NCBI GenBank assembly: GCA_025964155.1
Contig: JAOPZJ010000294.1
Span: forward strand, 1 to 33,796
DNA length: 33,796 nucleotides
Direction of reading: 5' to 3'
DNA from: Solirubrobacterales bacterium
GTDB lineage: Bacteria; Actinomycetota; Thermoleophilia; Solirubrobacterales; Solirubrobacteraceae
Shown here: positions 10,539 through 13,144 of the stretch, in pieces
Layout of the letters: each line of letters begins with the position of its first letter
Position numbering within the stretch: the first letter of the stretch is position 1
Translations under genes and position numbers: made by a program
Notes under the pieces: model-generated
The model's database searches: none
What the model was told of the DNA's origin: nothing
Seen by the model: the letters and a program-made list of their open reading frames with translations, nothing else

Positions 10539-10901
10539 TCAGGCCGCCACGAGCCCGCCGACGCGGTCGACCATGCGCTCGACGTCGGTCTTGTCGATCA
10601 GCTCGAGGCCCAGCTCCTGCGCGGCGGCCGCCACGGCGGGGTCCGCGTACGCGGTGTAGAGCACGATCGGCGTGGGCACGCCGCCGCTCCGCAACGCCTG
10701 CGCGACCTCCAGTCCCGTCATGCCGGGCATCCGAAAGTCCAGCACGACCGCCGCGAAGTCCGCCCCTGGCGCCTGCAGGAGGCGCAGCGCCTGGGGCCCG
10801 GACGCGGCCTCGTCGACGTCGAGGCCCGCCTCCTCGAGGGAGAGGCGCTCGTAGAAGCGCACGGACGGCTCGTCGTCGACGACGAGGACCCGTCCACGCA
10901 T
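10539..10901 (-). CDS. single-domain response regulator receiver (CheY-like)
   Basis: MRGRVLVVDDEPSVRFYERLSLEEAGLDVDEAASGPQALRLL...AAVVLDFRMPGMTGLEVAQALR...PIVLYTAYAD...ELIDKTD; DD, D, T/Y and K positions conserved. ATG overlaps the upstream stop (ATGA). Confidence 0.93.
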   Translation of the reverse strand: MRGRVLVVDDEPSVRFYERLSLEEAGLDVDEAASGPQALRLLQAPGADFAAVVLDFRMPGMTGLEVAQALRSGGVPTPIVLYTAYADPAVAAAAQELGLELIDKTDVERMVDRVGGLVAA

Positions 10902-11521
10902 CAGCGGTTCTTCCAGGGGTCGACGTAGATGTCGTCGACGGACCACGTGCCGGCGCCTTGCGGGGTGAAGCGGAAGGCGACGGGGGTCGTGTTGGGCGGC
11001 AGCAGCGGCAGGAGGTTGGCGACCACGAGGTACGGGAGCGTCGGCGACCACGACGAGCTGGGCAGCGCCACGCCGATCGGCAGGCTCCGGAGGCCGAGCA
11101 CGCCCTGGAAGAGCACGTCCACCCGGAGGGAGGACAGCAGCCCGGTGCCCTGCGAGCGCGTGAAGAAGCGGAGTGTCGGGTGGCCGAGGCCGACGCAGAT
11201 GGCCCCCGTCGTGGCGCTGGACCCGGAGGGCAGACTCAGGCTGCTCGAGTCGGAGGCCGCTCCGACCTGCCACGGCTCGTTGCCGGGGACGATGGCAGCG
11301 TCGCCGGTCAGCTGCAGGGCGTCTTCGGACTCGGCGTCACCGCCGGGAGCCGGCGTGTAGTTCGCCACGTCCGCCCAGGGCAGGAAGACCTGGCTGAGGG
11401 ACTGCGTGGCACAGGACTCGGGATCGACGACGAGGAGACCGGCGTGCGCGGCGCCGGGCGCCAGCGCGAGGCCGACGACGGCACCGACCGCCACACGGAC
11501 CAGTCGAGAAAACTGCAACAT
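10901..11521 (-). CDS. secreted hypothetical protein (signal peptide), coupled to the response regulator
   Basis: MLQFSRLVRVAVGAVVGLALAPGAAHAGLLVVDPESCATQSLSQVFLPWADVANY...TLRFFTRSQGTGLLSSLRVDVLFQGVLG...SVDDIYVDPWKNR; clear signal peptide. Confidence 0.82.
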   Translation of the reverse strand: MLQFSRLVRVAVGAVVGLALAPGAAHAGLLVVDPESCATQSLSQVFLPWADVANYTPAPGGDAESEDALQLTGDAAIVPGNEPWQVGAASDSSSLSLPSGSSATTGAICVGLGHPTLRFFTRSQGTGLLSSLRVDVLFQGVLGLRSLPIGVALPSSSWSPTLPYLVVANLLPLLPPNTTPVAFRFTPQGAGTWSVDDIYVDPWKNR

Positions 11522-11581: not shown

Positions 11582-11597
11582 CCGATCCACGGATCGG
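11582..11597. promoter_or_regulatory. palindromic site CCGATCC-AC-GGATCGG in the divergent intergenic region
   Basis: Perfect 7-bp arms, 2-nt spacer, between the secreted-protein start (11521) and the kinase start (11648). Confidence 0.45.
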
Positions 11598-11647
11598 ACA
11601 TCTGTCCAGTGCTTGCGTTGCGTCCCCTATAGCCCGAAGATGGCCGC

Positions 11648-13144
11648 GTGGCCGTCGCACCGGCTGGCGTCGAGCCGGAGACCAATCCTGAAGTCGCGCG
11701 TCTGTTGCGGGAGCAGCGGGTCGAGCTCTCCGAGCGCATGTCCCGGCGCGAGCGGCTGGCCGAGCTGTGGGTCGGTCTGGCGTTCCTCGTCGCCGCCGCC
11801 GGCGTGCTGGTGGTGGGCGACACCAGTGGCTTTGACCCCGTCGCGGCGCTCGTCCTGCTGGTCGCGTACGTCGGCGCCGGTCGCGTGCGCTTCGAGATCG
11901 GTGGGGGCGCGACGGATCCGACGCTGCTCGTGCTGATCCCGGCCCTGTTTGTCGAGCCGCCGGCGACGGTGCCGCTGCTCGTCGCCGCCGGCTGCGTGCT
12001 GGCGCGCGTGCCCGACTACCTCAGCGGGGCCGCGCACCCGGAAGGGGCGCTGGCCGCCCTGGGGAACTCATGGCACGCCATCGGGCCGGCGCTCGTGCTG
12101 TCGCTCGCCGTCGACGCGACTGACCCTCGCTTCGCGGACGCCGGCTGGTACCTGCTCGCGTTCGCGACGTACATGGCGGGTGACGCGGTCTCAGGCCTGA
12201 CGCGCCAGTGGGCGGCCCACGGGGTGCGCCCGCAGCTCCAGCTGCGCATGCTGGCCCGTGTGTACGCGCTCGACGCGCTGCTGGCGCCGGCCGGGTTGCT
12301 GGCGGCGCTCGCCACGGCGCGGGAGCCGTACGCCTTCCTGCTCGCGGTGCCGCTGGTGGTGGCGCTCGGCGTTCTGTCCCGCGAGCGCGGCAAGCGCCTG
12401 GATAACGCCCTCGCACTGAGTGAGACCCGGGCGCAGGTCCTCGAGGCCGAGCTCGAGGCCACCCGAGCGCGCGTGGAGGTCCTCGGTGCCGTGTCGCACG
12501 GCCTGCAGACCCCCGTCGCCGGCATCGTGGCGATCTCCGGCGTCCTGGCCCGGGGCGGTCCCGGCATGTCCGGCGAGGCCGTGGCGCAGGCCGCAGGTCG
12601 CCTGGAGGGGGACGCGCTTGCGCTGCGTCAGCTCGTGCGTCAGGCGTTGGACTACGTGCGCCTCGTGGACGGCGAGCCGTTGGGGCTGCGCGTGGAGGAC
12701 GTCGACGTCGCCGCCGTCGCCGGCGAGCTCGCCGATCGCTTGGCGATCCCGCCGGTCATCGCGCTTGGGCCGGGGCCGGCGCTCGCCCGCGCGGACGCGG
12801 TCCGCGTGCACCAGCTGCTTGCGTGCCTTCTGGCGCGGGCGCTGGCCGTCAGCGCGCAGCCGGGCGAGGTCCGCGTGACGGTGCAGCCGCTGGACACGGC
12901 GATCGAGGTGACCGTCGCGGAGGGCGGTCCGGCGCTGGACACGGTTGCGCTCGCCGTGCTGCTGCGGGCACCGCAAGGGGCGCTCGGCGCCATGGAGAAC
13001 CAGGGGACGGGCATCGACCTGTACGTCGCCGCCGAGCTGGCGGGGGCGATGGGCGGAACGCTGGCTGCGGTCGGTGGCGCCGACGCCGGCGGTGCCGGCG
13101 GCAACCGATGGGTCGTTCGGCTGCCGGCCGCCCGTAGCGTCTAG
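11648..13144 (+). CDS. membrane sensor histidine kinase-like protein with degenerate catalytic boxes
   Basis: N-terminal multi-TM region; DHp-like VLGAVSHGLQTPVAGIVAISGVLARGG; C-terminal GTGIDLYVAAELAGAMGGTLAAVGG...RWVVRLPAA. GTG start. Confidence 0.85.
   Translation: MAVAPAGVEPETNPEVARLLREQRVELSERMSRRERLAELWVGLAFLVAAAGVLVVGDTSGFDPVAALVLLVAYVGAGRVRFEIGGGATDPTLLVLIPALFVEPPATVPLLVAAGCVLARVPDYLSGAAHPEGALAALGNSWHAIGPALVLSLAVDATDPRFADAGWYLLAFATYMAGDAVSGLTRQWAAHGVRPQLQLRMLARVYALDALLAPAGLLAALATAREPYAFLLAVPLVVALGVLSRERGKRLDNALALSETRAQVLEAELEATRARVEVLGAVSHGLQTPVAGIVAISGVLARGGPGMSGEAVAQAAGRLEGDALALRQLVRQALDYVRLVDGEPLGLRVEDVDVAAVAGELADRLAIPPVIALGPGPALARADAVRVHQLLACLLARALAVSAQPGEVRVTVQPLDTAIEVTVAEGGPALDTVALAVLLRAPQGALGAMENQGTGIDLYVAAELAGAMGGTLAAVGGADAGGAGGNRWVVRLPAARSV

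What the first reader, a model, noticed from the sequence alone, without database searches (positions are those of the whole stretch)
11648..13144. Histidine kinase with degenerate H, N and D boxes (possible pseudokinase)
The DHp motif is SHGLQTPV instead of SHELRTPL-like: His is retained but the following acidic residue is lost. The N-box region DAVRVHQLLACLLARALAVS lacks the Mg-binding Asn of NLLxNAxK. The DxGxG box appears replaced by AEGGPA, although GTGIDL (G2-like) remains. The protein still has a multi-TM sensor region and sits next to a canonical receiver. It may be a phosphatase, scaffold or ligand-gated non-kinase.
Basis: seen in the sequence. Interest (0 to 1): 0.62.

Follow-up and report, generated by a model that had tools for sequence, protein, structure and literature searches.

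The report
Kinase-dead membrane sensor histidine kinase
This bacterial membrane sensor looks like an ordinary signalling kinase but has lost three features the kinase reaction needs while keeping its docking and dephosphorylating surface, so it probably switches a small partner protein off (or relays its phosphate) instead of phosphorylating it.

Summary
Window 11648-13141 (+) encodes a 498-aa membrane histidine kinase. At the exact aligned positions, H+1 is Gly (SHGLQTP), the N-box Asn is Arg397 and the G1 Asp is Glu425. His284, the H+4 Thr288 and the G2 box remain. 38 background kinases are canonical at these positions. Only three orthologues exist among 232 genomes of the order. The same-genus one (66%) shares all three losses. 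The other-genus one (47%) has SHGLQTP but intact N and G1 boxes, so H+1 was lost first and the ATP site later, in one genus. The frame is intact and the phosphoacceptor domain well conserved (77-81%), so this is not a dying gene. In the lab kinase CrdS, E-to-G at H+1 kills kinase but not phosphatase activity, and N-to-K in the N box kills kinase activity. Best reading: a kinase-dead sensor acting as phosphatase (or phosphotransferase) on a stand-alone receiver. The receiver gene overlaps the stop of an exported-protein gene; that pair occurs in exactly the three genomes (of 61) with this kinase. The membrane module is a class-wide sensor, usually fused to c-di-GMP enzymes. A new variant of a known kind (pseudo-histidine kinase). 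Activity is untested.

The parts
11648..13144 (+). Membrane sensor histidine kinase homologue with degenerate ATP site (498 aa)
11648..12430 (+). N-terminal multi-TM sensor module (residues 1-261, about 6-8 hydrophobic segments, short extracellular loops), shared class-wide with HD-GYP, GGDEF, SpoIIE-type phosphatase and hybrid kinase proteins
12413..12667 (+). DHp (phosphoacceptor) domain, residues 256-340; H284 and T288 kept, H+1 = G285
12494..12514 (+). H box SHGLQTP (H+1 acid replaced by Gly; H+4 Thr kept)
12788..13141 (+). CA (ATPase-like) domain, residues 381-498
12815..12844 (+). N-box position LLACLLARAL; Asn replaced by Arg397
12914..12940 (+). G1 box VAEGGPALD; Asp replaced by Glu425, second Gly by Ala429
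13001..13024 (+). G2 box QGTGIDLY, kept in all three orthologues
10901..11521 (-). Exported protein (signal peptide, 206 aa, no Pfam/NCBIfam/PHROG family), divergent from the kinase
10539..10901 (-). Stand-alone receiver (120 aa), start codon overlaps the stop of the exported-protein gene (TGATG); acceptor Asp, DD pair, Thr and Lys present
11593..11608 (-). Palindromic element TGGACAGATGTCCGAT in the 126-bp divergent promoter region; conserved upstream of related exported-protein genes

Best explanation
A kinase-dead transmembrane sensor. The membrane module receives an extracellular cue, probably through the exported protein encoded next door. The DHp domain docks the stand-alone receiver and, using Thr288, dephosphorylates it after another kinase or a small phosphodonor has phosphorylated it. 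The former ATP-binding domain no longer binds Mg-ATP productively and serves as a structural part that moves with the signal. Shown by sequence: loss of the H+1 acid, N-box Asn and G1 Asp; retention of His, H+4 Thr and the DHp domain; gene order and co-occurrence with the exported protein and receiver. Inferred: no kinase activity, phosphatase activity, partner identity, role of the exported protein.
For: Three losses at aligned positions against 38/38 canonical kinases; both same-genus orthologues share N-to-R and D-to-E, and the other-genus orthologue has the same H box with an intact ATP site. In CrdS, H+1 E-to-G abolishes kinase but leaves full phosphatase activity, N-box N482K abolishes kinase, the H+4 Asn/Thr is required only for phosphatase (CrdS N375T is partly active), and the paper notes that the isolated DHp domains of EnvZ and NtrB are phosphatases (PMC3510030). 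DHp is 77-81% and CA 50-51% identical between the two species; the CA/DHp ratio (0.66) is the lowest of 16 orthologous kinase pairs. The model fits HK853 in complexes with RR468, including the BeF3 complexes, at TM 0.74-0.78, and also DivL. The exported protein + receiver pair occurs in exactly the three of 61 genomes that have this kinase, even where it is unlinked.
Against: No activity measured. The CA/DHp ratio is lowest but not far outside the controls (next 0.69). His284 is kept, which also fits phosphotransfer. No kinase for the receiver is identified. Five other kinases in these two genomes have Gln at H+1 with an intact N box, so H+1 alone is not proof. Only three orthologues are known.
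Confidence: 0.5

Rival explanations
1. Phosphotransferase: His284 accepts a phosphate from the stand-alone receiver (or another receiver) and passes it on, as in PhyT, Spo0B or ChpT, so the protein is a signal-gated relay step.
For: His kept in all three orthologues, degenerate CA domain, membrane anchor and a stand-alone receiver partner, as in PhyT, which moves phosphate from the single-domain receiver SdrG to PhyR (PMC5898713).
Against: No second receiver with an output domain is linked. The H box is of HisKA type with H+4 Thr, as in phosphatases. The distant orthologue still keeps its ATP-site residues.
Confidence: 0.22
2. Scaffold or phospho-sensor (DivL-like): it binds the phosphorylated receiver and reports this to another kinase, without catalysis.
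For: Fold match to DivL; DivL lacks kinase and phosphatase activity and binds DivK~P (PMC4211667).
Against: DivL keeps its N, G1 and G2 boxes and loses the His; here the opposite pattern is seen. No partner kinase is known.
Confidence: 0.14
3. An unusual but working kinase that binds ATP in another way.
For: HATPase_c still scores above its Pfam cut-off; G2 and lid residues are conserved; D-to-E is a mild change.
Against: N-to-R removes the Mg ligand and no other Asn lies in that helix; H+1 Gly and N-box Lys are each kinase-null in CrdS (PMC3510030).
Confidence: 0.06
4. A decaying gene without function.
For: CA domain diverges fastest; rare, 3 of 232 genomes of the order.
Against: Intact frame in two species at 66% identity with the same altered residues, pN/pS 0.44 overall and 0.28 in DHp, conserved neighbours and promoter element.
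Confidence: 0.04

Closest known systems
HisKA-family histidine kinases (T. maritima HK853, M. xanthus CrdS)
   Same: DHp + CA fold, phosphoacceptor His, H+4 Thr/Asn, G2 box
   Different: H+1 acid, N-box Asn and G1 Asp are lost; CrdS mutants with the first change are phosphatase-only (PMC3510030)
PhyT/PhyP (Sphingomonas melonis)
   Same: Membrane-anchored kinase homologue with degenerate ATPase domain, kept His, working with a single-domain receiver (PMC5898713)
   Different: PhyT has the HRxxN (HWE/HisKA_2) motif, a periplasmic domain and a PhyR partner; none seen here
DivL (Caulobacter)
   Same: Kinase fold without kinase activity, works with a stand-alone receiver (PMC4211667)
   Different: DivL lost the His (Tyr) but kept N, G1 and G2; here the His is kept and the ATP site is lost
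Spo0B / ChpT phosphotransferases
   Same: DHp-like with non-functional ATPase-like domain
   Different: Those are soluble, not membrane sensors (own knowledge); sequence relation not tested here

Membership tests
HisKA histidine kinase (as a fold family) | HisKA DHp followed by HATPase_c domain | tested here: met
   Pfam HATPase_c above cut-off, HisKA below cut-off but aligned; profile and fold match to HK853
HisKA histidine kinase (as an active kinase) | H-E/D-x-x-T/N H box | tested here: not met
   H-G-L-Q-T; H+1 acid absent in all three orthologues, H+4 Thr present
HisKA histidine kinase (as an active kinase) | N-box Asn (Mg ligand) | tested here: not met
   Arg397; Arg also in G007; Asn in G014
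HisKA histidine kinase (as an active kinase) | G1 DxGxG | tested here: not met
   E425-G-G-P-A429
HisKA histidine kinase (as an active kinase) | ATP binding and autophosphorylation | not testable with these tools
   needs purified protein
Phosphatase-only HisKA protein | H+4 Thr/Asn with kinase-null residues | tested here: met
   T288 with G285 and R397; criterion from PMC3510030
Phosphatase-only HisKA protein | Dephosphorylates a receiver | not testable with these tools
   needs biochemistry
PhyT-type phosphotransferase | HRxxN motif and PhyR/NepR partners | tested here: not met
   HGLQT motif; no PhyR-like gene among the ORFs read beside it
DivL pseudo-kinase | His replaced by Tyr, ATP boxes kept | tested here: not met
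   His284 kept, N and G1 lost

The most novel reading that the evidence does not exclude
A kinase-free transmembrane signalling unit: exported protein as input, a class-wide membrane sensor module (elsewhere fused to c-di-GMP enzymes) joined to a transmitter that evolved into a phosphatase-only output, and a stand-alone receiver as its target, with the stepwise loss (H+1 first, ATP site second) still visible among living relatives.
Probability: 0.35. Interest if true: 0.65.

Novelty: new variant of a known kind. Interest (0 to 1): 0.47.

Why it matters
The pseudo-histidine kinases I found described, such as DivL and PhyT, come from alphaproteobacteria. This case shows an order of loss: the kinase-specific residue next to the His went first, and the ATP site decayed only afterwards in one genus, as expected if the protein had become phosphatase-only. 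The intermediate orthologue allows a direct test of whether ATP-site residues matter in a kinase-dead sensor. It also exposes a widespread pair of a membrane sensor module and an exported protein without a named family, linked to c-di-GMP signalling.

Tried and rejected
Shifted N or G1 residues: rejected by ungapped orthologue alignment and the absence of any other Asn in that helix. Frameshift or decaying gene: rejected. More orthologues: family, order and class searches gave only three, and the genome-contig scan gave only ordinary kinases. The DNA pattern for SHGLQTP was badly built (it needed a spacer, so it missed the window itself); apart from G014 its hits are chance, not kinases. The fast-CA argument: only lowest of 16, so used as weak support. 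AlphaFold of the exported protein alone failed (pLDDT 36). No solved structure resembles the membrane module by sequence. No riboswitch in the window's own divergent region. Paper searches for natural phosphatase-only kinases and for this kind of protein in Solirubrobacter gave nothing.

Full report
What is there. Window 11648-13144 (+) is one intact 498-aa frame starting at GTG, with third-position GC of 0.78-0.97 along its length. Residues 1-261 are a hydrophobic module with about 6-8 segments and short loops. Residues 256-340 are a HisKA-like DHp domain and 381-498 a HATPase_c-like CA domain.

The altered boxes are real. In a profile alignment with 38 other histidine kinases, all 38 have the N-box Asn and the G1 Asp and all 37 readable ones have Glu or Asp at H+1. 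Here H+1 is Gly285, the N-box residue is Arg397, the G1 Asp is Glu425 and the second G1 Gly is Ala429. His284, Thr288 (H+4), Pro289, the first G1 Gly and the G2 box are kept. The only Asn residues after position 340 are 451 and 486, so no shifted Asn can serve. Its best solved matches are HK853, mostly in complexes with its receiver, and DivL is also among them.

Orthologues and order of loss. Full-length orthologues exist in only three of 232 genomes of the order, and no further one turned up among 399 sampled genomes of the class. G007 (same genus, 66%) has the same H box, Arg in the N box and Glu in G1. G014 (another genus, 47%) has the same H box SHGLQTP but VDNAR and DTGPG intact. By parsimony the H+1 change is older and the ATP-site change younger, within one genus. 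This rests on three sequences.

Function kept. pN/pS between G000 and G007 is 0.28 in DHp, 0.36 in the membrane module and 0.67 in CA. As a control, 16 reciprocal kinase pairs of the same two genomes were compared: this pair has the lowest CA/DHp identity ratio (0.66; others 0.69-1.05), so the relaxation of CA is suggestive only. Of 49 kinases readable at the N box in these genomes only this one and its orthologue lack the Asn. Five others have Gln at H+1 with an intact N box, so H+1 alone would not prove kinase death.

What the losses mean. Mutagenesis of CrdS showed that the H+1 acid is required only for kinase activity. E372G in particular is kinase-dead and fully phosphatase-competent. The H+4 Asn/Thr is required for phosphatase activity, with Thr partly replacing Asn, and N482K in the N box is kinase-dead. 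The same paper notes that the DHp domains of EnvZ and NtrB alone act as phosphatases (PMC3510030). The protein here combines close equivalents of both kinase-null changes with the phosphatase residue kept. Phosphatase-only is therefore the best reading. Phosphotransfer, as in membrane-anchored PhyT with its degenerate ATPase domain and single-domain receiver partner (PMC5898713), is the main rival, and a DivL-like scaffold (PMC4211667) the next.

Partners. On the other strand, the stop codon of an exported-protein gene (10901-11521) overlaps the start codon of a stand-alone receiver (10539-10901) as TGATG. The receiver has the phosphorylation residues. In G007 the three genes are in the same order. 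In G014 the exported protein + receiver pair is intact but lies about 965 kb from the kinase. The pair is found in exactly the three of 61 relatives that carry this kinase, which supports a functional set; two of the three are the same genus, though the six other species of that genus that were searched lack both.

The membrane module. Residues 9-260 match proteins across the class whose C-termini are HD-GYP-type, GGDEF, SpoIIE-type phosphatase or hybrid kinase domains. In 32 of 54 fetched module loci a homologue of the exported protein lies within 1.5 kb. Two of those exported-protein genes follow c-di-GMP-I riboswitches above Rfam's cut-off. A palindrome, TGGACRGATGTCCGAT, sits in the window's divergent promoter region (11593-11608) and upstream of several related genes. 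In 33 upstream regions there are 2 exact and 4 one-mismatch sites against 0.26 expected from shuffles, and there are 13 sites in four genomes against none for the reversed pattern. The exported protein may be the module's extracellular partner; this is inference.

Verdict. A kinase-dead HisKA homologue, very likely functional, most likely a signal-controlled phosphatase of a stand-alone receiver. It is not a member of the active kinases (three defining residues tested and not met), nor of the DivL or PhyT types (tested and not met), though it may work like the latter.

Noticed in passing
window 10901-11521 (-); L007, L043-L047, L049, L051 and others: An exported protein family without a Pfam, NCBIfam or PHROG match sits next to the multi-TM module genes in 32 of 54 loci, whatever the output domain (HD-GYP, GGDEF, kinase).
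   Followed up: partly
L047:2449-2527 (+), L051:1243-1324 (-): c-di-GMP-I riboswitches directly upstream of the exported-protein genes in two relatives, tying the pair to c-di-GMP.
   Followed up: partly
window 11593-11608; L041:8422; L063, L149-L153; L179; L186: Rare palindrome TGGACRGATGTCCGAT upstream of exported-protein genes, also 60 bp before a PilM-like gene in G014 (L179, named by eye) and before another exported protein in G007 (L186); possible small regulon.
   Followed up: partly
L148, L158 (same genome): Two other kinases with a canonical H box and N-box Asn have Asn in place of the G1 Asp (VVNSGPTIA, VENTGEKLT).
   Followed up: no
L142, L162, L163, L169, L171: Five otherwise ordinary kinases in the two genomes have Gln at H+1 (SHQLRTP/SHQMRTP).
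   Followed up: no
L010/L027, L055, L030: Tandem copies of the TM-module protein genes side by side in some relatives.
   Followed up: no
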